Source: a virus
Reading direction: 5' to 3' (one strand)
Length of the DNA stretch: 31,065 nucleotides
Virus record (IMG/VR): IMGVR_UViG_3300005753_000042
Span: 1 to 31,065 of that record
Shown: in pieces, positions 4,645 through 31,065 of the stretch
How positions within the stretch are numbered: position 1 is the stretch's first letter
How the letters are laid out: every line of letters starts with the position of its first letter
Translations under genes and position numbers: made by a program
The notes under the pieces: generated by a model
What the model saw: only the letters and a program-made list of their open reading frames with translations
Databases searched by the model: none
What the model was told of the DNA's origin: nothing

Positions 4645-5814
4645 TTATTGAAGGTCGTCAGGCCCTGGACCATAATCAGCTGCTTGTAAGGTTAAATATT
4701 GCAAAAAGTTTCCACTTACTATCTTATCAATTACTTGCGTAATTACATATAATCCGCCAAAAACTTCATCTCCTTGTTTACTTTGAACAGCTACTGATCT
4801 TGGTAAATCAATTCTAATTTTACTATATACTCGAAGTAAACATAGTCCTTCAACCGCTATTTTAAGATTTTGTTGATTATTAATAATGTCACGATAATCT
4901 TCATTTAATCCAGTAGTTTTATTTTTTTCTAAATGAGATATTTCTCTTGTTCCTAAATTTTCAAAAAGCTTTGGCATTTCAAGTTCATCTCCATACCCCA
5001 TATATTTATTTAGCTTTTGTGTTTTAAACTCAGTTTCTACACTTATTTTAGAAGGAAAATATCCTAAATTTAATGGATCGTGATTTACTAAATTTGCTTT
5101 AGGAGCTTTTTGTGTACTCTTATTATTAGATGTTTTACCTTGATATTCAATTATATTCCAATAAGGTAGTTCTTCATTTCTATTCAATGTAAATGGGTGC
5201 TCACTTGGTCCAACTAACTGATTATAATTCAATAAATCTTTATTAGCTAATGTTAATCCTTGTCTATCACTAAACACTTGAACATTTTGTAATTTAGCTT
5301 CTCTTTTTATCCATTCCCATAATGAAATATTGCCTGGAACTACAAAAAAATCATTTTTTATTCCATCTTTTTCAAAAATATTAATGGTTAAATTATTATC
5401 GTTGGCAATATCTTTAACTATTTCTAAAAATGTCATATTGGTATATGTTTTACTTAAATACATTGTACTTAAAGCATTACTAGTTAATTCTTCTAAATTC
5501 ATTATAACATTTATGATATTATTTTTAATTCTTAAAACTTCACTACTAGCTACAATAAAATCTAACTCTGTCTCATTATTTAAGGCATCAACAAGTCTAA
5601 TTTTAATAATGGGAAATGTAATTGGAGCAAATTCACACATATTCATTGTATCAGCAAAACTAATTTTAGCTTTAATTAATTCACCATAATTAATTTGAAC
5701 ATCAACAATGTCTTGACTTCTAAGTTCCATTCCATTTATTAATACTGTAAGAGATTTATATTGGGCTGTTTCTCCTATTAATGGATTAGTTTGTACTTCA
5801 TTACCTGCACCCAT
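4645..5814 (-). CDS. Baseplate central hub protein, T4 gp27-like
   Basis: 389 aa, almost the same length as T4 gp27 (391 aa). The family forms the trimeric hub that holds the gp5 spike below and the tube above. Features include an N-terminal beta domain with KSLTVLINGMELRSQDIVDV, a middle region with WEWIKREAKLQNVQVFSD typical of hub folds shared with phage late control protein D and VgrG, and a C-terminal strand-rich part (GGLYVITQVIDKIVSGNFL). The order gp53-gp27-gp5-gp25-gp6 in one operon makes the role clear. The start codon overlaps the last base of the gp53-like stop (TAATG), so translation is probably coupled. Confidence 0.85.
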   Translation of the reverse strand: MGAGNEVQTNPLIGETAQYKSLTVLINGMELRSQDIVDVQINYGELIKAKISFADTMNMCEFAPITFPIIKIRLVDALNNETELDFIVASSEVLRIKNNIINVIMNLEELTSNALSTMYLSKTYTNMTFLEIVKDIANDNNLTINIFEKDGIKNDFFVVPGNISLWEWIKREAKLQNVQVFSDRQGLTLANKDLLNYNQLVGPSEHPFTLNRNEELPYWNIIEYQGKTSNNKSTQKAPKANLVNHDPLNLGYFPSKISVETEFKTQKLNKYMGYGDELEMPKLFENLGTREISHLEKNKTTGLNEDYRDIINNQQNLKIAVEGLCLLRVYSKIRIDLPRSVAVQSKQGDEVFGGLYVITQVIDKIVSGNFLQYLTLQAADYGPGPDDLQ

Positions 5815-6314
5815 TATTCCTCACCTGGTTCTTCCAAAATCAAATGATTTTCAGCTCTATAATCTTTAACAATAGATAATAAAATGTTAATCTTTTTAGG
5901 GGTAGGAACAGTTATTGTTTTACGATTAGTATTTTCTAAATTTATCTTTTCTTCTATTCGTTCAATAATATCTTTAAAATTTTCATTACCTTGTAATTCA
6001 GCAAAATCCAATTCTTTAGTAATTAATCCAGTTAAAGCAACTGTTTTCTCATACATAATCTCACTATTATAAGGTGAAGACCATAAAAATACATTATTAT
6101 TTGCTGCTAATATTACATCAGCAAAATCAGTACTTCCATATAAATCGTATGAAATATTTTCAACTTTTTCATCAATGTCAACAGAATATAATGTAAAATA
6201 TGTAGGATATTGTTTAAATAAATCTAGAACCCCACCATAATAATAACTTGTATAATCAGTTACATCAAATCCACCAATTTCTCTTCTATCGTATTTGTAT
6301 ATATTATTTTTCAT
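5814..6314 (-). CDS. Baseplate wedge protein, T4 gp53-like
   Basis: 166 aa (T4 gp53 is 196 aa). The hallmark is the segment ISYDLYGSTDFADVILAANN (residues about 54-73), which matches the family motif in which a YG-containing loop precedes a helix with a WVIL/DVIL core and an Asn-rich turn. In T4, gp53 completes the wedge with gp6, gp7 and gp25, and contains a LysM-like fold. It shares a base with the stop of the gene upstream (TAATG) and with the start of the gp27-like gene downstream, so all three genes look translationally coupled. Confidence 0.85.
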   Translation of the reverse strand: MKNNIYKYDRREIGGFDVTDYTSYYYGGVLDLFKQYPTYFTLYSVDIDEKVENISYDLYGSTDFADVILAANNNVFLWSSPYNSEIMYEKTVALTGLITKELDFAELQGNENFKDIIERIEEKINLENTNRKTITVPTPKKINILLSIVKDYRAENHLILEEPGEE

Positions 6315-7327
6315 TAAAAAGCCTCAAATTCAGCTAAATCAGCATTACTAAAACCATCACTATCAATACCAGCCGCAATTTCATCATTTGTGCCTTGACC
6401 AAATAACTGTGATAAAGAATTTCCAGCAACTCTTTTTTTATCTCTAGAATCTTGTTCTTGCCAATCTTCCATAGTATTAACACGTCTTTCAACCATTTTA
6501 ATACTTAATGAAATTTGTTTTACCATTCCATCACTAAACATTTCCATATTTCCAACACCATAACCAACATCAATTCCTGTTATAACCATATCATTATATC
6601 TTGTTGTATCATCTAAATGTTTATTATTAAATGTAATAGTACAAAAATAAGGAGCTAGCAATAATGCTTTAGCTGCTTGAGTTTCAGGACTACTAAATCT
6701 TTTTAATGTTCTAATTATTTTTAGAATAGTAGCCGCTTCTTCTCTACTATTTGGAAGTAATGTCCATTCAAAATCTAAACTTCTTGGTGTAGATCCTGTA
6801 TAACTTTGAGTTTTATCAGGATTAATTAAAGAACCTCTAGTTCCTGTAAATTTTGATATTTCAGTTAATGCTTTTTGTGCTATTTCAGCACCTGGTATTA
6901 AGTTTAATAATGTAGAAACTGTTCCAGATTGTTCATCCCAATTATTTGTAATAGATTCTCCAAGACTATTAGGAACAGGTAAAAATATTGAACCTTTATA
7001 TGTTGTGAAATCTTTTTGTAAATTAGTTGTAGCTACATCTCCAGTAACTGCAATACTTCCATCTTTTTGTTTAACAACTTTAAATCTTTTTTTAGATTGT
7101 TCAAATACATTTACAAAACTATCAGCTATTTTAGTAACTGACTTAAGAGCTTTTGTTTTTGCGACATCAGTATCACCTGCTAATGCTGTTGTTCCAGCAT
7201 CAATGATACCTATAAGTCCATCAATTACATCTTTGGCAAATTCAGGTGCATAAAAATCAAAAGAAATATATCTCTTTTTACTTAAATCATCTGGATATAT
7301 TAAAATATCTTCATTTATTTTTGGCAT
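6314..7327 (-). CDS. Baseplate tube cap/initiator, T4 gp48/gp54-like
   Basis: 337 aa, between T4 gp54 (320 aa) and gp48 (364 aa). These proteins start tube assembly on the hub and carry a tube-protein fold. Visible features are an N-terminal strand (KRYISFDFYAPEF), a segment giving the hydrophobic turn IFLPVPNSLGESITNNWDEQ (residues about 114-133), then RSLDFEWTLLPNSREEAATI and IIRTLKRFSSPETQAAK. The IFLPVP...W pattern and the later strand-rich region with CTITFNN are typical of gp48-type proteins. It lies between the M23 hub protein and the gp53-like gene. Whether it equals gp48 or gp54 cannot be decided without a search. Confidence 0.75.
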   Translation of the reverse strand: MPKINEDILIYPDDLSKKRYISFDFYAPEFAKDVIDGLIGIIDAGTTALAGDTDVAKTKALKSVTKIADSFVNVFEQSKKRFKVVKQKDGSIAVTGDVATTNLQKDFTTYKGSIFLPVPNSLGESITNNWDEQSGTVSTLLNLIPGAEIAQKALTEISKFTGTRGSLINPDKTQSYTGSTPRSLDFEWTLLPNSREEAATILKIIRTLKRFSSPETQAAKALLLAPYFCTITFNNKHLDDTTRYNDMVITGIDVGYGVGNMEMFSDGMVKQISLSIKMVERRVNTMEDWQEQDSRDKKRVAGNSLSQLFGQGTNDEIAAGIDSDGFSNADLAEFEAF

Positions 7328-7336
7328 ACTTTTCCT

Positions 7337-9454
7337 TTAAACTTGTATATTACTTTCAGCTTGCATTAATGAAGAGGTAGCTGAACGTGCTTTTAATTTA
7401 TTAATCTCTATCGCCTGATTATTTATAGCTTTTGTGTGAGCATTATAAGCTCCTACACCATCATTTCCATTAGTATTTGATTTTTGAGGAGCAGCTGAAA
7501 CATTAATTGTATTATTAGCTACTTGAGTTCCTCCACTAGAATTGGCTTCTATCCCATCTGTTCCATCTGCTCCAGGTTTAGCACTACTTAAACTAGCAAT
7601 GTACCTTAAAGGATCTATGGTTTTCTTTTCTTCTTTAACAGCAAAGTGAATGTGTGGAACATAAGGTTTTCCTGATGTACCTTTACCTGAGTTACCAGAT
7701 TTAGCAATAGTTTGACCTATCTTAACAACATCACCTTTTTTAACATTAGTGGAATTCAAGTGCATAAACATTACACGTTTTCCATTATCATCTCTAATAA
7801 CTAATACTCTTCCACCTCTAGTGTTAGGTGTATTTTGAAAACCTTCAACTGTTCCATTTACTGGAGATGTAATTGATGTATTCATTGCAGCTCTAAAATC
7901 TACTCCACCGTGTTTTTGACCACCTGAAATAGCCCTAGTTTTACCATAAGGCGAAGTTATAACTTGCATAAATGGCTGAAAATTACTTCCACTATATCCA
8001 CCATAAGATGTTGGACCTGTTCCAACTGCCGCAACTGGTGCGGTTGAAACTGGTGTAATACCACCATCTCTTGAACCTGTTTTATCTAAACTATTAAATT
8101 GTGCAACGACTTCATTATTAATGGCAGCTTTTCTTTTTATGTTTCTTGTTTGATTAGCTTTTTGAGCATTTATATATTTCTCTTCAATAGCTTTTCTTTC
8201 TTCAGCTGCCGCAATTGCTTCAGCTCTTGAAATTTTTAAATTATCTTTAGCAACACTTACAGTATTTCCTCCAAGGTATAATGATTTAAGCATATCTCCT
8301 AAATTAATATCTGTACCAAATACCGAAAAGTTTAAATAATCAAAAGGTAATAAATCAATAAGATCAATCCACCATTCATTTATTTTAAGTTTTAAGTAAG
8401 GAAATATTCCACCTACTGGAGCAACTTCCTTACCCCACCATTCAACAGCCATTTCTTTGACAACTAACCAATCTTTTCCAAAAGCTTTTTCCATAATAGG
8501 ATCAACTAATTTAAAAGCTAATTCTCCTACAAATCTATGTCCTGCCGTTACAGCTTGAAATAATTTTTCAGCAATGTAAGTTCCAAATCCGACTTCATTA
8601 ACATAATTCCACCAATTTGAAATAGCTGTAGCTGTTGTTTCCCACCAATTCTTGAAAAAATCCCAATTTGATGTCCAAAATATTTGGGCTTCTTCCCATT
8701 GGTCTCCATATAAAGCTCCTAAAGCAACATCAGCTATCCACAGTGCAACGTTACCAATTCCTTTTAGACTTTCCCAAATAAATTTATCCCAGCCACCAAA
8801 TTTAGTTTGTACATATTTATCTATAGTTATCCATAGACCTTTGAAGAAACTACCTCCACCTTTCTTTTTCATATTTCTATAAAAACTTATTAATCCACCA
8901 ATTATAGGCATTAATAAGGCCATTAAACCTGGACCAGCCTCACTTTTAACAGTTTTTGATATTCCAGCAATAGCTCCACTAATAAAGCCTCCGCCAGATT
9001 CTTCTTTTTCACCAAAACCTGCAGTTTGATTTTTATCATTATTTTTATCTACATCTGTTGCAATTTTTTCAGTATTTTTAGAAATATTATCTAAACTTCC
9101 TGATATACTCTTCATAAAAGCTTCTTGCTTTATTTTAGCTTTCTTATCATCACCACCACCTAAACCTTGAAACCCAGTAGTCTTAACAGTTGTACCATTC
9201 ATCATAGCTACTAAAGTTTCCATTGTTTTAGCCGTGTCAGCAGCTTGGCTAATAGCAGCTTCTTCATTTTTAAATTGTCTTTTTCTTGTTTCAGCCGCAG
9301 CTAAATCTTTTTTTTGTTTTTTAGATAGCTTTGGAACAGCTTTTGGTAGTGAAGTTGACAGTGGGGAAGTGGTTGGACTAGGTGCTACAGAAGATTTAAC
9401 TTTTTCGGCTACAGCTTTTTTGGGCATTATCATTTTTAATAATTGTGGAAGCAT
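7337..9454 (-). CDS. Baseplate hub/tail lysin with C-terminal M23 (LytM) metallopeptidase domain
   Basis: 705 aa. The start is charged and Ala/Lys-rich, with a likely coiled coil (residues about 40-75). A hydrophobic segment of about 20 residues (about 172-192, LMALLMPIIGGLISF) and a Trp-rich region follow. The peptidase domain spans about 490-620. It carries the zinc ligands of M23 enzymes: HGGVD (His515, Asp519) and HIH (His601, His603), plus the FMHLN and GQTIAKSGNSG segments of the family. M23 enzymes cut peptide cross-links in peptidoglycan, so this is probably the tail-borne wall-cutting enzyme that acts during DNA entry. The gene is in the baseplate operon beside a gp5-like spike that lacks lysozyme, which supports that role. 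The gene start is 15 bp after the stop of the gp26-like gene. Confidence 0.88.
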   Translation of the reverse strand: MLPQLLKMIMPKKAVAEKVKSSVAPSPTTSPLSTSLPKAVPKLSKKQKKDLAAAETRKRQFKNEEAAISQAADTAKTMETLVAMMNGTTVKTTGFQGLGGGDDKKAKIKQEAFMKSISGSLDNISKNTEKIATDVDKNNDKNQTAGFGEKEESGGGFISGAIAGISKTVKSEAGPGLMALLMPIIGGLISFYRNMKKKGGGSFFKGLWITIDKYVQTKFGGWDKFIWESLKGIGNVALWIADVALGALYGDQWEEAQIFWTSNWDFFKNWWETTATAISNWWNYVNEVGFGTYIAEKLFQAVTAGHRFVGELAFKLVDPIMEKAFGKDWLVVKEMAVEWWGKEVAPVGGIFPYLKLKINEWWIDLIDLLPFDYLNFSVFGTDINLGDMLKSLYLGGNTVSVAKDNLKISRAEAIAAAEERKAIEEKYINAQKANQTRNIKRKAAINNEVVAQFNSLDKTGSRDGGITPVSTAPVAAVGTGPTSYGGYSGSNFQPFMQVITSPYGKTRAISGGQKHGGVDFRAAMNTSITSPVNGTVEGFQNTPNTRGGRVLVIRDDNGKRVMFMHLNSTNVKKGDVVKIGQTIAKSGNSGKGTSGKPYVPHIHFAVKEEKKTIDPLRYIASLSSAKPGADGTDGIEANSSGGTQVANNTINVSAAPQKSNTNGNDGVGAYNAHTKAINNQAIEINKLKARSATSSLMQAESNIQV

Positions 9455-13681: not shown

Positions 13682-13788
13682 GTCAAAAGTGTAATTCTTT
13701 ATATTGGAATCGGCGATGCTACTTTAAGTGAAGAGCTTATAGTCTTAGAAAAAGTATCTATGAAACACCTCTTTGACAATAATTACAC
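13682..13788 (+). other. Structured leader with two mutually crossing stems
   Basis: Gene-free leader between the late promoter and the endonuclease. GTGTAATT (13689-13696) is the exact reverse complement of AATTACAC (13781-13788), and GTCAAA (13682-13687) of TTTGAC (13772-13777). The two pairings cross, so they form either a pseudoknot or alternative structures. The 3' arm of the longer stem ends directly before the AAGGA ribosome site (13789-13793). Not a tRNA or a known riboswitch that I can recognise. Confidence 0.4.
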
Positions 13789-13799
13789 AAGGAAAAAAT

Positions 13800-14543
13800 A
13801 TGATAACATTATATGAAGCCGAACATAATATTTCTAAATTAAAATATTTTGCTAAGACTGAATTATATCATACTGTAGAAGATCTCCAAAGATTTTACCA
13901 CGGTAGTGGTAAGTATTGGAAGAATCATTTAAAGAAACACGATGATGATGTTACTATGAAAATTTTACACTTCTCTAATGATATAAAACTAATAAACTCT
14001 TTAGCTTTAATGTATAGTAAATTCTGGAATATAGTTGAATCTAAAGATTACGCTAACTTAAAACCTGAAAATGGTTTAGATGGTTGGGTGTTGGGTCAAA
14101 CATCACCAAACTTTGGTAAAAAAACTTCACATAAAGTTAAACTCAAAATTTCTAATAGTTTAATAAATTATCATAAAAATAATATCAATGGATTTTTTGG
14201 AAAAACTCATTCTCCAGAAACTTTAGCTCTTTTATCCACAAAGAAATTAAAGTTTTTAAGTAATAATTTGCATCCTATGCTTGGAAAAACTCATTCCAAA
14301 GAATCAAAAGAAAAGATGAGAAATAAAGTATATTCAAAAGAGTCAAAAGAAAAAATGTCTCAATCTGCTATTGGAAAACATTGTTCAAGTAATAATGGAA
14401 TGTTTGGAAACATATCAGTTAGAGATTTAAGAAATGGTAACTGTTATGTTGTTACTAAGGAATTTTTTTATGAGAATAAATTTAATAAAACTAATGGCTA
14501 CTTAGTAGGTAGTCGTTCAAAAATTAATAATTTTAAGGATTAA
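13800..14543 (+). CDS. Homing endonuclease with NUMOD3 repeats (Seg-like)
   Basis: 247 aa from the ATG at 13800, chosen because AAGGA lies 6 bp upstream; an upstream TTG at 13773 is open but has no ribosome site. The N-terminal part has the degenerate GIY-YIG-associated segment FYHGSGKYWKNHLKKHDDDV, common in phage Seg-like nucleases. The C-terminal half has at least three NUMOD3 DNA-binding repeats: NFGKKTSHKVKLKISNS, GFFGKTHSPETLALL and HPMLGKTHSKESKEKM, then YSKESKEKMSQSAIGKH. Such free-standing genes spread by cutting a homologous site and being copied across. It separates the tube and sheath genes and ends 2 bp before the sheath ATG. A clear catalytic GIY is not visible, so activity is uncertain. 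Confidence 0.75.
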   Translation: MITLYEAEHNISKLKYFAKTELYHTVEDLQRFYHGSGKYWKNHLKKHDDDVTMKILHFSNDIKLINSLALMYSKFWNIVESKDYANLKPENGLDGWVLGQTSPNFGKKTSHKVKLKISNSLINYHKNNINGFFGKTHSPETLALLSTKKLKFLSNNLHPMLGKTHSKESKEKMRNKVYSKESKEKMSQSAIGKHCSSNNGMFGNISVRDLRNGNCYVVTKEFFYENKFNKTNGYLVGSRSKINNFKD

Positions 14544-16714: not shown

Positions 16715-16746
16715 ATTAAAGATTGAGATTAGTCTCTTTCTTTAAT
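16715..16746. terminator. Bidirectional hairpin terminator between sheath gene and convergent endonuclease
   Basis: ATTAAAGA (16715-16722) pairs with TCTTTAAT (16739-16746); after a TT/TT internal loop, GAGA pairs with TCTC around a TTAG loop. It sits between the convergent sheath and endonuclease genes and overlaps the endonuclease stop codon (16742-16744). Confidence 0.55.
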
Positions 16747-17725
16747 AAATCTTTAATATAAAGTTAAATCCTTCATCTGTTACAGATTTTTCCTTTAATT
16801 GGAATACATTATTTTTTAATCCCTGATTATAAGTATATTCACTCTTCACTTCATATATAGTATTAGTACTTTTTATATAACAATCAGGAAAATATCTCCT
16901 TCTTATCCCAAATATATCAATATACCAAAAATGAGGCATATTTTTATAATCAGTTATAATATCTTCTTCTTTATACTCTTTTAATAACTCATCAAATAAT
17001 TGAGGTTCATATCCTTGACAATACCAGATATTATGTTTAGGTGTTATATACCATTTAGTTTTATATTGGGCTCTCATATTTTTACTATGTATATTTGAGT
17101 CTTGCATACAATTATTAACACCGTATCTTTCTTGATTTGTCTCTGTAATCTTTTGTTTTATAATTTTAGATTGAAATACATTTTCAACTCCATATCTTTC
17201 TAAATTAGTTTTCTTAGTTTTTTCTTTGGTCTTTTCGGTTTTTCCAATTCTTTTTTGTGTAATTTTTCTTTTTATTTTACTCGCTTCCGAATTCCAACCC
17301 TCGTTTACAGACCAATTAATAAAACACTCTTTACATCTAGTTCCTCTCAAAACTATGTCTGGCCTATTGATATATTCATTACCGCATTTACATTCAAATA
17401 GAGTTTTTTCTAATAACCCCGTGAATTTACCTATTAACTTTGTATCAGTTTCTAAAATATCTATTCTATAATTAAGTTCCTGTTGTTTAACAACTTCTAA
17501 TCTTACACATTTATTACATTTTCCAAAACTTTTACCCTTTATTCTTCTTCCCTTAGCTATAAATTGTTCTCCACACATACACTCCCATTTAGACTCCTTT
17601 TTAACTCCATTAAATACACCTATAACTTTTATTATTATATTTTTATCATTTAATTTCTGAAAGAATATTTTGTCAGTTTTAGCTCTTTTGGTTGTTGATA
17701 TTTTTTGTTTTATTTTTTCATTCAT
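16742..17725 (-). CDS. Free-standing homing endonuclease, zinc ribbons plus PD-(D/E)XK nuclease
   Basis: 327 aa. Two tandem Cys4 ribbons (Cys49/51/70/73 and Cys112/114/131/134) probably bind DNA. Two repeats of the ERYGVENVFQ/ERYGVNNCMQ type (about 176-210), often found in phage homing nucleases, follow. The C-terminal nuclease core shows Glu240 (GYEPQLFDELL), Pro280-Asp281 (YFPDCYI) and Glu292-x-Lys294 (IYEVKS), the PD-(D/E)XK pattern. It is convergent with the sheath gene, whose 3' end next to it is strikingly GC-rich. Ribosome site AAAGAG; no late box seen. Product likely cuts a site in or near gene 18 of relatives (inference). Confidence 0.8.
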   Translation of the reverse strand: MNEKIKQKISTTKRAKTDKIFFQKLNDKNIIIKVIGVFNGVKKESKWECMCGEQFIAKGRRIKGKSFGKCNKCVRLEVVKQQELNYRIDILETDTKLIGKFTGLLEKTLFECKCGNEYINRPDIVLRGTRCKECFINWSVNEGWNSEASKIKRKITQKRIGKTEKTKEKTKKTNLERYGVENVFQSKIIKQKITETNQERYGVNNCMQDSNIHSKNMRAQYKTKWYITPKHNIWYCQGYEPQLFDELLKEYKEEDIITDYKNMPHFWYIDIFGIRRRYFPDCYIKSTNTIYEVKSEYTYNQGLKNNVFQLKEKSVTDEGFNFILKIY

Positions 17726-20238: not shown

Positions 20239-20556
20239 ATGGATTTCAAATCATTTAAAAAATCAGAAAGCGTTAGTGAGTTAAAAATAGAGCTTAAAGT
20301 TCTAGAAAGTTCAATAAATGAAGATATGCCTGCGGGAGATAAAAAGGTAATTGAGAAAAAAATTGCTCAATTACAAGAAAAAATTAAATTATTTGATTCT
20401 ACAGTAGCTGGAGATATTGCAATAGCTACAACAGATTTTAGTTTATGTTCAGGCGAAGATGGATGTGAGTGTGGTAAGTGTCAGATACTAAAAAGACCAG
20501 AACTTAGAGAAGCAGTAGAAAAAAATTCAGCTTTTGGCGGATTCTTCGGAGGTTAA
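20239..20556 (+). CDS. Hypothetical late protein with C-terminal Cys4 motif (105 aa)
   Basis: 105 aa. The first 55 residues form a charged helical hairpin (ELKIELKVLESSINEDM, then VIEKKIAQLQEKIKLFD). Cys70, Cys76, Cys78 and Cys81 (CSGEDGCECGKC) could bind a metal. The tail ends in a Gly/Phe-rich GGFFGG. I do not recognise the family. It is preceded by a late promoter and followed directly by a GIY-YIG endonuclease and the gp15-like gene, so it is probably a structural or assembly protein that was next to the gp15 gene before the endonuclease arrived. Confidence 0.65.
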   Translation: MDFKSFKKSESVSELKIELKVLESSINEDMPAGDKKVIEKKIAQLQEKIKLFDSTVAGDIAIATTDFSLCSGEDGCECGKCQILKRPELREAVEKNSAFGGFFGG

Positions 20557-20557
20557 T

Positions 20558-21181
20558 ATGTCTTTACATCTAATATATAAACATACTTGTTTAATATCTG
20601 GTAAGTCTTATATCGGTCAGACTAAGAGATTAATTAATATAAGATTAAATGAGCATATTCAATTGAGCAACAGGTGGAGTCAAACTCACTTCCATAGAGT
20701 TATAAGAAAATATGGAGTTGAAAATTTCACTTCTGAAATAATAGTTGAAAATGTGCCTGATTATATGATTAGTGCTTTTGAAAAATATTGGATAAATTTT
20801 TATAATACTTTTAAAAATGGGTATAATATGACAGAAGGTGGAGAAGGAACAGTTTCAAGAATAATGACAAATGAAACAAAGATAAAAATTAAAAAATCTT
20901 ATTTAATTGTTAATTCTGAGACAGGTTTAAGTATAGCACAAGAAATTGGATTAAACTTATCTAAATCTTTAATTCAAAATGGTAAGTTTTTTAATGTATT
21001 AAATAAAAATGATGAAATAATTTACAAAGAAATTCCTTTAATAGAAGTGAGAAAAATATCACAATCATTGCCAAAATCATCAAAAGAATGTAGACTTGGG
21101 AAAAATAATCAATCAATATCAGCATTAAGAAGGCAAAATAAATTGAACTTGATAGGATACTATGTAGAGGAAATAATATGA
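20558..21181 (+). CDS. GIY-YIG homing endonuclease (Seg-like)
   Basis: 207 aa from the ATG at 20558, chosen because CGGAGGTTA directly precedes it; an in-frame extension to 20534 lies inside the upstream gene and is unlikely. The catalytic GIY-YIG domain is clear: Ile6-Tyr7 (LIYKHT) and Tyr18-Ile19-Gly20 (SYIGQT), Arg29 with Glu32-His33 (RLNEH), the KYGVENFTSEII strand, a Glu in FEKYWINFY, and the closing GYNMTEGGEG. The C-terminal half is basic and probably binds DNA. It is inserted between the 105-aa gene and the gp15-like gene and overlaps the latter by ATGA. It is a free-standing mobile gene. Confidence 0.9.
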   Translation: MSLHLIYKHTCLISGKSYIGQTKRLINIRLNEHIQLSNRWSQTHFHRVIRKYGVENFTSEIIVENVPDYMISAFEKYWINFYNTFKNGYNMTEGGEGTVSRIMTNETKIKIKKSYLIVNSETGLSIAQEIGLNLSKSLIQNGKFFNVLNKNDEIIYKEIPLIEVRKISQSLPKSSKECRLGKNNQSISALRRQNKLNLIGYYVEEII

Positions 21182-27414: not shown

Positions 27415-28107
27415 ATGAAACTACATTATACATATAGAATATCAAATATAATAAAAAATAAACATTATTATGGCATTAGAACAGCTGTAAATCCTCATAA
27501 AGATTTAGGTATAAAATATTTTTCTTCATCTTCAGATAAAGAATTTATTAAAGATCAAAAAAATAACCCAGAAAATTACAAATATAAAATAATTTTTATA
27601 TTTAATAATAGAATTGACGCTATTAAAATGGAAATAAAACTTCATAATAAAATGGATGTAGGAATAAATGAGAACTTTTATAATAAAGTAAAGCAGACAT
27701 CAATAGGATTTGATACTTCTGGATTAACAGGTAAAAAATGTCATAGAACTGGCACTAAAATGTCAAATGAAACTAAAGAAAAATTAAGAAATATAAATTT
27801 AGGTAAAATACGTTCTGAAGAGTCAAAACTTAAGCAACGAGGATATAAGCACACAAATGAAGCTAAATATAATATTTCAAAAAATCATAGAGGTATATCT
27901 GCCAAGGATAATCCTAGCGCAAAAAAATTTAAATTTATTTCACCTCAAGGCATAGAATATATTATAGAAGGAGGTGGTAAAAAATTCTGTGAAAGAATGG
28001 AATTAAGCTGGAATATGTTTATGAAATACCCAAATGAAGTGATAGTAGATAGAAAAATCCAGCAAACAATTATAAAACAAGAAATACTTTTGGGTGGATT
28101 AGATTAG
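27415..28107 (+). CDS. GIY-YIG homing endonuclease with NUMOD3 motif
   Basis: 230 aa. The N-terminus (YTYRISNIIKNKHYYGIRTA) is a GIY-YIG-like catalytic start, of the divergent kind in which Y-x-Y and Y-Y-G replace GIY and YIG. The YFSSSSDKEFIKD loop and later IDAIKMEIKLHNKM helix also fit phage Seg-like nucleases. NUMOD3-type repeats (GKKCHRTGTKMSNETKEKLR, then KIRSEESKLK) give DNA binding. It is divergent from the HD gene and convergent with the IntC-C-extein gene. It has two TATAATTT boxes at about 27365 and 27390 and a GGAAT ribosome site. Likely mobile. Confidence 0.8.
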   Translation: MKLHYTYRISNIIKNKHYYGIRTAVNPHKDLGIKYFSSSSDKEFIKDQKNNPENYKYKIIFIFNNRIDAIKMEIKLHNKMDVGINENFYNKVKQTSIGFDTSGLTGKKCHRTGTKMSNETKEKLRNINLGKIRSEESKLKQRGYKHTNEAKYNISKNHRGISAKDNPSAKKFKFISPQGIEYIIEGGGKKFCERMELSWNMFMKYPNEVIVDRKIQQTIIKQEILLGGLD

Positions 28108-28116: not shown

Positions 28117-28950
28117 TTAAGCCCATTTATTAGGAACTGGAGTATAACCAACAATTTTAGAAACTACATCTTTAGTAAGTTTAGCAGAATCTATTTTCTT
28201 ACCTTTTTCTTTAACAGTAATATAATCAGCTTGAACAACATACATTCCACCTTTACCAGATGAAGCAAGCTCAGAATCTACATACTGCTTATTAAAAGCA
28301 AATACAATAACTCCATCCATATATTTTTTAACATCTGAGCCAAAAGATGTAACTTTCTTTAAAGTTAAAGCTGCACCTTCGTGAGTTCCAATAAGAATAT
28401 CTTCAGGAACTACACGTTCTCTTCCTTTATTCTGTTCTATAGCAACTTTGAAGTCATTAACAACCCATACAATATGAATATTTTCTTTTTTATAACCTAA
28501 GGCTGATACATCTTGAGAAATTTCAGAAAGTTTAGAAACACTATCCATAGTTACATCAAAAATAATATTAGGTCTACGTTCAGGATTTCCTGCTAATATT
28601 GAAGCATATAAAGATGCTTTACGATTTTTATCTAAACCTAAATCTTTTATGATTTTATGTAAACGTGAAACATTTTCTGGGTCCTTTAATGACATTGTTT
28701 TAATATCAATTCCCATTGTTTCTTTAACTTTTTTTATAATTCCTGACGATTTTTTAGCCATTACTTTTAAGGCATCAACATCTAAAATTTTACCTTCTAA
28801 ACCTAAAAGATTTTGGGTTACAAATCCTTTACCTGAATTATGCACATTTATATTATTTTTAGTAACTGTATATGTATGATTATTTTCTACTTCAATATCA
28901 TATACAACTTGTTTTTCTATTTTTCTAATACTTTTAACTTTTAATTTCAT
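28117..28950 (-). CDS. Split intein C-half (IntC) fused to C-extein of a P-loop kinase-like protein
   Basis: 277 aa. Residues 1-38 are an intein C-terminal half: a short strand (VKSIRKIEKQ), block F (VVYDIEVENNHTYTV) and block G ending INVHN (His37-Asn38), then Ser39 as the +1 nucleophile. The C-extein (39-277) begins SGKGFVTQNLL, the second half of a Walker A loop, and continues with LDVDALKVMAK, RRPNIIFDVTMDS, IHIVWVVNDF and NKGRERVVP, a P-loop kinase layout resembling zeta-toxin-like kinases (tentative). The partner is the gene at 30091-30480. The ATG at 28950 has only a distant AAGG (13 bp), and the frame overlaps the end of the endonuclease gene by 17 bp, suggesting coupled translation. 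Confidence 0.92.
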   Translation of the reverse strand: MKLKVKSIRKIEKQVVYDIEVENNHTYTVTKNNINVHNSGKGFVTQNLLGLEGKILDVDALKVMAKKSSGIIKKVKETMGIDIKTMSLKDPENVSRLHKIIKDLGLDKNRKASLYASILAGNPERRPNIIFDVTMDSVSKLSEISQDVSALGYKKENIHIVWVVNDFKVAIEQNKGRERVVPEDILIGTHEGAALTLKKVTSFGSDVKKYMDGVIVFAFNKQYVDSELASSGKGGMYVVQADYITVKEKGKKIDSAKLTKDVVSKIVGYTPVPNKWA

Positions 28951-29523
28951 AATTTTTTAAAAACCTTTTTAATTTACCTTTATCTATAATAACATCTTTT
29001 AATATATAATCATCCCATATATTATATATATCGACCATTTCTTCTGTATATATGAGAAATGAGTCAAATTTACTATCTTTTACAAAATTTTCAGCTGCTG
29101 AGAATTTTTCATTATTATATTTAATTAAACTTTTAGGTTTAATCTCTATAATATTATTACCTATCAAAAAATCGGGTATATAATTTTTCTGTTTTCCCTC
29201 TATAATATATGGTATAACTATTTTAGTAGACTTATGCTTATTAATATTTATATCATTAGAAATATATTTAATAGCATTCTCCTCAAAAAATTTTAAATAT
29301 CTATATTCTAATGTTGATCTAAAATATTCATTTTTATAATATCCACTAATACCATTACCAGACCCAAGAGGTGAGGGTTTACCATACATACCATTTAGTT
29401 TACCTGGACGAGACTTTAATTTATTGGTCTTTATATATTCCTCTTCCCAAACTGCGCCATATTTAGCCTTATAAAATTTTTTAGACCCAGTATCACATTT
29501 AATACAATTTTTTATATACTTTT

Positions 29524-29642
29524 TTCCCAACCATTCCCATATTTACTCTTATAAAAATTTTTAGATGAGCTATCTTTTAGTTTTTTATCTTTTTCATATT
29601 TTTCTTCCCAACCATTCCCATATTTACTCTTATAAAAATTTT
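29524..29642 (-). repeat. Exact 38-bp direct repeat with 81-bp period in the endonuclease gene
   Basis: The 38 bases at 29524-29561 and 29605-29642 are identical. The offset is 81 bp, 27 codons, so the protein repeat (NFYKSKYGNGWE) is in register. A third, diverged copy follows (KKFYKAKYGAVWE). The DNA identity points to a recent duplication. Confidence 0.85.
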
Positions 29643-29969
29643 CACCTCTACTTTGAATTTTAGATACCTTTAAAATAGAATCATTAATAGAATATCCTTT
29701 TTTCATCCAATATTCTTTACATCGGTTACTTCTTGTCTTTTGTTCATATATTATTTTTAGTTTTGCATCTACTTCTAAATATCCTCTAGAAGTCCAATAT
29801 TTAATATTTAATATTGTTTTACTCCAAAATAATTTATTTAATAATTTATTAAAATTTGATACACTTATAACTGGGGTATTTTCTATTATTAACTTTAGAC
29901 CAATAATTTGATTATTAGATAGGTTAAATATTTCAGTGTTTTTTATATTATCCCTAATATATTCTTTAA

Positions 29970-29989
29970 TATATTCTATATTCTATATT
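29970..29989 (-). repeat. 7-bp tandem duplication causing a frameshift
   Basis: The 20 bases have period 7 (TATAGAA read on the minus strand, twice, plus flanking matches). Deleting one copy restores the endonuclease reading frame. Confidence 0.8.
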
Positions 29990-30049
29990 TATATTATTAT
30001 AGATAATTTTATTCTTATTTTTAATAAGTTTCATGCTATCTCCTTATAT

Positions 30050-30057
30050 TATTTATA
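30050..30057 (-). promoter_or_regulatory. Late promoter (TATAAATA) for the split-intein endonuclease
   Basis: Minus-strand TATAAATA, 15 bp upstream of the ATG at 30034, with an AAGGAG ribosome site between. Because TATTTATAAATA is palindromic, a plus-strand box (30054-30061) also exists, but no gene follows it on that strand. Confidence 0.65.
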
Positions 30058-30090
30058 AATAGCAGGAGGCAGTGGGACTGTTATTATAAA

Positions 30091-30480
30091 TTAGACAATA
30101 ACATATTCTAAATCTTTAGCTTCTACCCATTTATCACCAACTAAAAATTTGTGATCTGATGTACATTTTACTTTTGACTCTTCGCCATTTTCATCTTCAA
30201 ATATAATCTCAATCATCTTTTTCTCAGGTTTATATATAAAGGTATTCGTTACTTTTTGATACTCTTGTACTTTCGTATCTTCATTTATGGATAATACTTT
30301 ATCATTAATCTTTATATCTGATATATTTTTATATCCTTCGGATGTATTTATAACTGTATCACCATCAAAACAGCCAGCTCCGCCCGCTAAAATCACAATA
30401 TTTCCAAATTTTGGATATGCTTTTTTACCTAAAGTAATTAACACTTCATTCATTGGGTTTGTAAACATTTCTTTGAACAT
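30091..30480 (-). CDS. Split intein N-half (IntN) fused to N-extein of a P-loop kinase-like protein
   Basis: 129 aa. Residues 1-36 are the N-extein, ending VILAGGAG, the first half of a Walker A loop. Residues 37-129 are IntN, 93 aa: block A starts with the Cys nucleophile (CFDGDTVINTSEGYKNISDI), then DKVLSI, and block B carries T-x-x-H (KCTSDHKFLV, Thr107 and His110). It ends KDLEYVIV then stop, with no endonuclease domain and no block F/G, so it needs the 38-aa IntC at 28950. Trans-splicing would give AGGAG-SGKG, a Walker A loop, in a 275-aa protein. A late promoter (30499-30506) precedes it, with ribosome site AAAGG. Confidence 0.93.
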   Translation of the reverse strand: MFKEMFTNPMNEVLITLGKKAYPKFGNIVILAGGAGCFDGDTVINTSEGYKNISDIKINDKVLSINEDTKVQEYQKVTNTFIYKPEKKMIEIIFEDENGEESKVKCTSDHKFLVGDKWVEAKDLEYVIV

Positions 30481-30498: not shown

Positions 30499-30506
30499 TA
30501 TTTATA
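30499..30506 (-). promoter_or_regulatory. Late promoter (TATAAATA) for the N-extein/IntN gene
   Basis: Minus-strand TATAAATA, 18 bp upstream of the ATG at 30480, with an AAAGG ribosome site between. It implies that the P-loop protein is made late. Confidence 0.7.
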
Positions 30507-30645: not shown

Positions 30646-31065
30646 TTAAATTATATTTTCTTTTACCAAATTATATGTATTTAAGTCTATTTTATTACTT
30701 ACATCTTCACCATTTTTAATATTTTCTCTAATGGATGTTCCACTAACACTCCCATACCTAGGAATAAAAAAATTTTCACAATTTGAATTTTTCATTTTAT
30801 CTATGATGACAGGATTACCTTGAACAAAAATATCAAAATCATTTCCAAAATCTGTCCAATCATCTTGAAGATTTGGAGACTTAATTACATTATATCCATA
30901 ACTCTTAAGTAATTTAATATTATCTTCTAATGGGATAATGTCATCTTTATCTTCTCTTAGAGCTACCGTTACATTAGGTGAGAGTCTTTTAGCTTCTTCT
31001 AATACAACCTTGTGACCAGAATGAAACCCCATAAATCGCGCTATAACCAAAACCTTCGGGAAAAA
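30646..31065 (-). CDS. Nucleotidyltransferase-like protein (5' end outside window)
   Basis: Open from the right edge to TAA 30646-30648 (at least 139 residues); no ATG or ribosome site is seen at the only in-window candidate, a TTG at 31050, so it probably starts upstream. The sequence FPKVLVIARFMGFHSGHKVV contains the nucleotidylyltransferase signature GFHSGH (HxGH), and the C-terminal SGTSIREN matches the second motif (ISSTxIR). This fold includes NMN adenylyltransferase and phosphopantetheine adenylyltransferase, enzymes that make NAD or CoA. In phages such genes often serve NAD supply. The substrate cannot be fixed from the part visible here. Confidence 0.85.
   Translation of the reverse strand, partial: FFPKVLVIARFMGFHSGHKVVLEEAKRLSPNVTVALREDKDDIIPLEDNIKLLKSYGYNVIKSPNLQDDWTDFGNDFDIFVQGNPVIIDKMKNSNCENFFIPRYGSVSGTSIRENIKNGEDVSNKIDLNTYNLVKENII

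What the first reader, a model, noticed from the sequence alone, without database searches (positions are those of the whole stretch)
28117..30480. Naturally split intein inserted in the Walker A loop of a phage P-loop kinase
Seen: the 30480 gene ends in a full intein N-half (Cys after AGGAG, T-x-x-H block B) and stops; the 28950 gene starts with an intein C-half ending VHN followed by Ser-Gly-Lys. Joining the exteins gives AGGAGSGKGF, a Walker A loop, so the gene is fractured exactly in the nucleotide-binding site. Known: fractured genes with split inteins and a free-standing homing endonuclease between the halves have been described from environmental phage-like DNA (for example gp41-1-type inteins, with similar 88/37 residue halves). 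Inference: without trans-splicing neither half can bind nucleotide. I know of no example at this host gene, so the insertion point may be new.
Basis: partly seen in the sequence, partly recalled or inferred. Interest (0 to 1): 0.93.

Follow-up and report, generated by a model that had tools for sequence, protein, structure and literature searches.

The report
Split intein in phage kinase Walker loop
A T4-like phage makes one nucleotide-binding enzyme as two separate proteins that almost certainly splice themselves together through a split intein placed inside the ATP-binding loop, and related phages carry two other, very different inteins at exactly the same spot.

Summary
On the minus strand, 30480-30091 encodes N-extein (36 aa) plus an intein N-half (93 aa), and 28950-28117 encodes an intein C-half (38 aa) plus C-extein (239 aa). 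Both exteins match one family, phrog_5268. Joined, they are collinear over 99% with uninterrupted proteins of about 200 T4-like phage records, and all 32 family-invariant residues are kept. The cut lies in the Walker A loop (AGGAG|SGKG). A second natural split intein sits at the identical site in a divergent phage, held as two matching contigs. Contiguous inteins of two other types (DOD/Hom_end and LAGLIDADG_3) occupy the same site in further phages, including the isolate Tenacibaculum PTm5. In the host-gene tree the window and its two closest relatives carry one of each type, so this site was probably invaded at least three times. The host is a PNK/zeta-fold P-loop kinase family. The gene between the halves is a PD-(D/E)XK (TnsA-like) homing endonuclease, broken by two frame changes and probably decaying. 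The best reading is a fractured gene repaired by protein trans-splicing: a new member of a known kind, at an apparently undescribed host gene and site. Splicing itself is not shown.

The parts
30091..30480 (-). N-half gene: N-extein + intein N-half, stop
   Evidence: ORF of 129 aa; AAAGG 6 bases before the ATG
30373..30480 (-). N-extein, 36 aa, ends AGGAG (first part of the Walker A loop)
   Evidence: phrog_5268 positions 5-43; uninterrupted relatives read AGGAG|SGKGF in 101 of 102 loci of the motif class counted
30094..30372 (-). intein N-half, 93 aa: Cys1, block B TSDH at residue 71
   Evidence: Pfam PT-HINT 7.8e-12, Intein_splicing 1.4e-7; motif positions
28934..30034 (-). homing endonuclease gene between the halves, PD-(D/E)XK (TnsA-like); starts AAGGAGATAGCATG at 30034, changes frame near 29970-29995 and near 29525, ends 28934; probably decaying
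   Evidence: three-frame translation; the last 198 aa match TnsA-like_N E 3.7e-6 and phrog_15427 endonuclease E 4e-7
29440..29642 (-). three copies of a (K/N)FYK(S/A)KYG..WE repeat that continue across the second frame change, indicating that the segments are one gene
   Evidence: direct repeats of 42 nt, 74-98% alike; translations
28117..28950 (-). C-half gene: intein C-half + C-extein; its ATG overlaps the endonuclease end by 17 nt
   Evidence: ORF of 277 aa
28837..28950 (-). intein C-half, 38 aa: block F YDIEVENNHTY, block G NVHN
   Evidence: Pfam Intein_splicing positions 122-155; full-length match of joined halves to solved inteins
28120..28836 (-). C-extein, 239 aa, starts SGKG (second part of the Walker A loop)
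   Evidence: phrog_5268 positions 38-278, E 8.9e-87
30499..30506 (-). TATAAATA, T4-type late-promoter-like box before the N-half gene (suggestive only)
   Evidence: 21 such boxes in the window against 12.5 expected, sd 3.6
30050..30057 (-). TATAAATA box before the endonuclease gene (suggestive only)

Best explanation
A phage P-loop kinase gene (phrog_5268; polynucleotide-kinase/zeta-like fold) is fractured in its Walker A loop by a naturally split intein. The two genes are translated separately. The acidic 93-aa N-half and the mildly basic 38-aa C-half associate and fold into one Hint domain. Cys1, the block B Thr/His, block F, the penultimate His, the terminal Asn and the +1 Ser then carry out standard protein splicing. 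This joins ...GGAG to SGKG... and restores an uninterrupted 275-aa kinase. A PD-(D/E)XK homing endonuclease gene lies where contiguous inteins carry their endonuclease domain; it is the likely former driver of spread and now looks broken. Shown: the parts, shared family, exact site, retained residues, and same-site alleles elsewhere. Inferred: association, splicing, kinase activity, past homing.
For: Both halves hit one host family at adjoining positions. The joined protein is collinear with uninterrupted phage homologues, 52-54% identity over 99% for the best rows. All 32 invariant and 32 of 36 near-invariant host residues are kept, and a second split-intein phage also keeps all 32 invariant ones. 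The joined intein matches Spl DnaX and gp41-1 inteins end to end. All catalytic motif residues are present. A second split intein lies at the same site in L068 and L254, whose 8,495 shared bases are identical. Contiguous inteins at the identical site: L005, L187 (Hom_end_hint/Hom_end) and L008, L071, L073 = PTm5 (LAGLIDADG_3). Net charge of the halves is -7/+3 here and -18/+2 in L068, while contiguous same-site inteins lack this pattern. A parallel architecture occurs in an isolate: Salmonella phage STP4-a uvsW is split, with a NUMOD3 + TnsA-like endonuclease between the halves that shares phrog_15427 similarity with the window's endonuclease.
Against: No splicing was observed. The endonuclease gene is frame-broken, so present mobility is doubtful. 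The C-half start has only a weak ribosome-binding site (AAAAAGG 13 bases upstream). The window allele is known from a single viral record of 31,065 bases. The C-half alone scores below Pfam's cut-off.
Confidence: 0.9

Rival explanations
1. Broken gene: the intein was split by insertion of the endonuclease gene and can no longer splice; both halves are decaying remnants.
For: The endonuclease gene between the halves has two frame changes and the region is very A+T-rich, 22% G+C.
Against: Both intein halves and both exteins are open, in frame and keep every motif residue and all 32 invariant host residues. A divergent phage keeps the same split arrangement. Decay would be expected to hit the 239-aa C-extein as well as the endonuclease, and it has not.
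Confidence: 0.06
2. Assembly artefact: the gene is contiguous in the real phage, or two phages were joined.
For: One contig only for the window; the endonuclease frame changes lie at a short tandem repeat and an A-run.
Against: The N-half stop is followed by a ribosome-binding site and a new start, and the intervening gene is in another frame. The same split organisation occurs in L068/L254, contigs of two metagenome records, and in the uvsW gene of an isolated phage.
Confidence: 0.03
3. Regulated fracture (an addition to the best explanation, not an alternative to splicing): the split is kept because trans-splicing delays or conditions activity of a kinase that could be harmful if made early.
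For: Fold neighbours include zeta/PezT kinases and polynucleotide kinases. The cut divides the Walker A loop until splicing. TATAAATA boxes precede the N-half and the endonuclease.
Against: About 100 viral-contig relatives and about 200 phage records carry the uninterrupted gene, so the fracture is not generally needed. P-loop insertion is the usual habit of inteins (PMC5050341, PMC5874633). The promoter boxes are only mildly enriched.
Confidence: 0.08

Closest known systems
Fractured genes with split inteins and a free-standing endonuclease between the halves (Dassa et al. 2009, PMC2677866; gp41-1, NrdA, IMPDH types)
   Same: Two genes on one strand, intein N-half and C-half of similar size, endonuclease gene between; joined halves match solved gp41-1 over full length
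   Different: Host gene is a phrog_5268 kinase. The endonuclease is PD-(D/E)XK/TnsA-like; the family in that paper is, from memory, Vsr-like (paper not held). The endonuclease gene here is frame-broken. Halves are 93/38 aa.
Split uvsW of Salmonella phage STP4-a (KJ000058; phage S16 and others match alike)
   Same: Split intein (N-half 40.7% identical to the window's) with a NUMOD3 + TnsA-like endonuclease of phrog_15427 kin between the halves
   Different: Helicase host gene; intact endonuclease; +1 residue Cys instead of Ser
Split nrdA of Campylobacter phages (e.g. F379), and split PolB inteins of T4-like Campylobacter phages (PMC12707363)
   Same: Split intein in a T4-like phage; of the inteins compared, the window's is most like the F379 one, 45%
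   Different: Other host genes; the proteins between the nrdA halves match no endonuclease family here
Contiguous inteins at the same site of the same kinase (Tenacibaculum phage PTm5 BBI90887.1; contigs L005, L187, L008, L071)
   Same: Identical insertion point AGGAG|...|SGKG
   Different: One polypeptide with a built-in LAGLIDADG-type domain; intein sequences form separate, well-supported groups
P-loop inteins of mycobacteriophage TerL (PMC5050341)
   Same: Insertion in Walker A
   Different: TerL-a lies between Lys and Thr; here the cut is before Ser-Gly-Lys

Membership tests
Intein (Hint splicing domain) | N-terminal nucleophile Cys/Ser, block B TxxH, block F, C-terminal His-Asn, +1 Cys/Ser/Thr | tested here: met
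   Cys1, TSDH at 71, YDIEVENNHTY, VHN|S
Intein (Hint splicing domain) | Profile or sequence match over the whole splicing domain | tested here: met
   PT-HINT 7.8e-12 (above cut-off), Intein_splicing for both halves; joined halves match solved inteins over residues 3-131 of 131
Naturally split intein | Halves encoded by separate genes, each fused to one part of the same host protein | tested here: met
   Separate ORFs; both exteins in phrog_5268, collinear with uninterrupted proteins
Naturally split intein | Protein trans-splicing activity | not testable with these tools
   needs co-expression and mass spectrometry
Fractured gene (split intein with free-standing homing endonuclease) | Endonuclease gene between the halves | tested here: met
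   TnsA-like_N 3.7e-6, phrog_15427 4e-7
Fractured gene (split intein with free-standing homing endonuclease) | Endonuclease gene intact (usual, not required: L068 has none) | tested here: not met
   two frame changes between the ATG at 30034 and the stop at 28934
PD-(D/E)XK homing endonuclease, TnsA-like | Catalytic PD...(D/E)xK motif | tested here: met
   E75...PDFLIGNNIIEIKP, aligned with the STP4-a enzyme (SDF...EIRP)
PD-(D/E)XK homing endonuclease, TnsA-like | Fold | tested here: inconclusive
   single-sequence model failed, pLDDT 33
PNK/zeta-type P-loop kinase (host protein) | Fold of the kinase class | tested here: met
   model of an uninterrupted relative, pLDDT 87.6; Z 13.8-10.8 (rmsd 2.9-3.8, 147-207 aligned) to AvrRxo1, zeta, PezT, C. 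thermocellum polynucleotide kinase and T4 Pnk; Zeta_toxin 1.8e-5 for L184
PNK/zeta-type P-loop kinase (host protein) | Walker A GxxxxGK[ST] | tested here: inconclusive
   GGAGSGKG: GK is invariant but the S/T position is Gly in all 34 relatives
PNK/zeta-type P-loop kinase (host protein) | Kinase activity and substrate | not testable with these tools
   substrate unknown

The most novel reading that the evidence does not exclude
A single peptide bond in a phage kinase Walker A loop has been invaded at least three times by very different inteins, one of which is a trans-splicing pair. The split is kept as a post-translational switch that holds a zeta/PNK-like kinase inactive until both halves are made.
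Probability: 0.1. Interest if true: 0.75.

Novelty: new member of a known kind. Interest (0 to 1): 0.55.

Why it matters
It adds a new host gene and an apparently undescribed Walker A insertion point to phage split inteins, with two divergent natural pairs as fresh candidates for protein ligation. The host-gene clade that carries split, DOD and LAGLIDADG_3 inteins at one bond is a natural test of how inteins replace each other at a site and how split forms arise. Because the cut divides the nucleotide-binding loop, kinase activity of the joined protein would be a direct readout of splicing.

Tried and rejected
Single-sequence structure prediction of the endonuclease ORF gave pLDDT 33 and was discarded. 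Scans for endonuclease relatives gave only NUMOD-like linker matches and one weak locus. The intein tree does not resolve whether the window and L068 split inteins share a same-site ancestor; the window intein is no closer to L068's than to the Campylobacter phage NrdA intein, so 'one ancient split allele' was neither accepted nor rejected. A structure of the joined intein could not be requested because the joined sequence is not a translation of any one stretch. Readthrough between the halves was rejected: the N-half stops at 30091 and stops occur in all frames before 28950. The Dassa 2009 and Carvajal-Vallejos 2012 papers are not in the library. Paper searches for an intein in this kinase family found none.

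Full report
OBSERVATION. The sequence at 28117-30480 is as described. On the minus strand the first gene (30480-30091) encodes MFKE...VILAGGAG followed by CFDGDTVINTSEGYKNISDIKINDKV...KCTSDHKF...AKDLEYVIV and a stop. The second (28950-28117) encodes MKLKVKSIRKIEKQVVYDIEVENNHTYTVTKNNINVHN followed by SGKGFVTQ.... The halves are 93 and 38 residues; the joined exteins are 275 residues.

IT IS AN INTEIN. The N-half matches PT-HINT (7.8e-12, above the curated cut-off) and Intein_splicing (1.4e-7); the C-half matches the end of Intein_splicing weakly. The two halves end to end match solved mini-inteins over residues 3-131 of 131: Spl DnaX 1.4e-7 and gp41-1 6.6e-6. Cys1, TSDH, the block F motif, His-Asn and +1 Ser are present. 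The N-half is acidic (-7) and the C-half mildly basic (+3). The other split intein at this site shows the same sign pattern; the contiguous ones do not. That fits association by opposite charge, but it is weak evidence.

THE EXTEINS BELONG TOGETHER. Both hit phrog_5268 at adjoining model positions. The joined protein aligns over 99% of its length, in one piece across the junction, with proteins of T4-like phages of Klebsiella, Enterobacter, Cronobacter, Citrobacter, Morganella and others at up to 53.8% identity. In the viral contigs fetched, 101 of 102 loci in the counted motif class read AGGAG|SGKGF with nothing between; a few more read AGGAA|SGKG and similar. In an alignment of 34 relatives, 32 columns are invariant and the window keeps all 32 after joining.

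THE SITE IS OCCUPIED ELSEWHERE. A pattern scan for ILAGGAG followed by Cys, the relative scans and the phage search found other inteins at exactly this bond. (a) A second split intein: L068 (and L254, L255; two contigs from different metagenome records, 8,495 shared bases identical). Its N-half gene is 1228-1608 with an 88-aa intein part, then 320 bases without a forward-strand ORF of 40 aa or more, then a C-half gene 1929-2861 with a 36-aa intein part ending LVHN|SGKGF. Its C-extein is 38% identical to the window's and it too keeps all 32 invariant residues. (b) Contiguous 340-aa and 339-aa inteins with Hom_end_hint/Hom_end domains in L005 and L187. (c) Contiguous 317-321-aa inteins with a LAGLIDADG_3-like domain in L008, L071 and Tenacibaculum phage PTm5 (ORF-187, BBI90887.1, annotated only as hypothetical), ending SGN|SGKG. 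Groups (b) and (c) are each well supported and very distant from the split inteins (long branches, so their mutual placement is unsure). In the host-protein tree the window, L005 and L008 form one clade (99/96) and carry three different intein types. The simplest reading is at least three invasions of this bond. Whether the two split inteins share a same-site ancestor is not resolved.

THE HOST PROTEIN. A model of an uninterrupted relative (pLDDT 87.6) has the fold of polynucleotide-kinase/zeta-type P-loop kinases: best matches AvrRxo1, epsilon/zeta, C. thermocellum polynucleotide kinase, PezT and T4 Pnk, Z 13.8 to 10.8. Zeta_toxin matches some members above its cut-off (L184). The Walker A is GGAGSGKG, with Gly where most kinases have Ser/Thr, invariant across the 34 aligned members. 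In Straboviridae the gene sits next to a 5'(3')-deoxyribonucleotidase-like gene; near the window's gene there is an HD-domain gene also found beside it in L005. The substrate is unknown; a nucleotide or nucleic-acid end is my inference.

THE GENE BETWEEN THE HALVES. An ATG with AAGGAG lies at 30034. The reading frame leaves it near a short tandem repeat (29970-29995), continues in a second frame, and returns near an A-run at about 29525 to the ORF that ends at 28934. An FYK.KYG..WE repeat occurs three times across the second break, so the segments look like one gene. Its last part matches TnsA-like_N (3.7e-6) and phrog_15427 endonuclease (4e-7) and shows E...PDF...EIKP. A protein with NUMOD3, TnsA-like_N and phrog_15427 matches lies between the split uvsW halves of Salmonella phage STP4-a (pairwise 39% over 51 residues). 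I conclude that the endonuclease is a PD-(D/E)XK homing enzyme that probably spread the element, and that it is either decaying or carries assembly errors. I lean to decay because there are two separate breaks; read mapping would decide.

MECHANISM. Shown: parts, family, site, conservation, same-site alleles. From established chemistry of class 1 inteins: N-S acyl shift at Cys1, transfer to Ser+1, Asn cyclisation, O-N shift. Inferred: the halves meet and splice in the infected cell, giving a 275-aa kinase; without it neither half holds a complete Walker A loop. Confidence 0.9.

KNOWN OR NEW. Fractured genes with split inteins are known (Dassa 2009, cited in PMC7090010 and PMC10448857; the paper itself is not held). 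Insertion in P-loops is a usual habit of inteins (PMC5050341: TerL-a between Lys and Thr and TerL-b one residue away; PMC5874633), and split inteins are known from T4-like phages (PMC12707363). New here, as far as I can tell, are the host gene, the position before Ser-Gly-Lys, and three intein types at one bond in one host-gene clade. No paper found by my searches describes an intein in this family, within a library that lacks many journals. Verdict: real, well supported, a new member of a known kind.

CONTEXT. The window is a whole viral record of 31,065 bases, a fragment with T4-like tail genes; its tail sheath is 42% identical to that of Vibrio phage Va1 and 34% to those of Campylobacter phages. 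It carries several other endonuclease-like genes (see noticed items).

Noticed in passing
L006:5359-7702: UvsX (RecA-like) gene carrying a split intein (5359-6270 / 6728-7702) and, in the C-half, a further contiguous 134-aa mini-intein: two inteins in one phage recombinase.
   Followed up: partly
L007:5269-7580: Another uvsX gene split by an intein, N-half 5269-6282 and C-half 7041-7580.
   Followed up: partly
L258 (Salmonella phage STP4-a) 1814-4540: uvsW annotated as two helicase genes is a split-intein gene with a NUMOD3/TnsA-like endonuclease between the halves; the annotation misses the intein.
   Followed up: yes
L257 (Campylobacter phage F379) 1187-4817: nrdA is split by an intein with two proteins of unknown family between the halves; annotated as two reductase genes.
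   Followed up: partly
window 27415-28107 (+), 20534-21181 (+), 13773-14543 (+), 16742-17725 (-): Four further endonuclease-like genes: NUMOD3/phrog_314 homing endonuclease, GIY-YIG, a gene with three NUMOD3 motifs, and a DUF7487 gene with a possible PD-(D/E)XK motif.
   Followed up: no
window 30646-31065 (-): Nucleotidyltransferase-like gene (CTP_transf_like, weak) directly upstream of the kinase; RB43 has a Pre-B cell enhancing factor (nicotinamide-phosphoribosyltransferase)-like gene about 6 kb from its kinase, and the top fold match of the kinase is AvrRxo1. A link to NAD metabolism is possible.
   Followed up: no
window 29440-29642: FYK.KYG..WE repeats in the endonuclease gene, about 80-nt spacing, perhaps DNA-binding modules.
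   Followed up: no
L068:1609-1928: The gap between the second pair of split halves holds no forward-strand ORF of 40 aa or more; possibly the scar of a lost endonuclease gene.
   Followed up: partly
phrog_5268 family, alignment A3 (L184 residues 36-38): The Walker A loop has Gly in place of the usual Ser/Thr after GK in all 34 aligned members.
   Followed up: no
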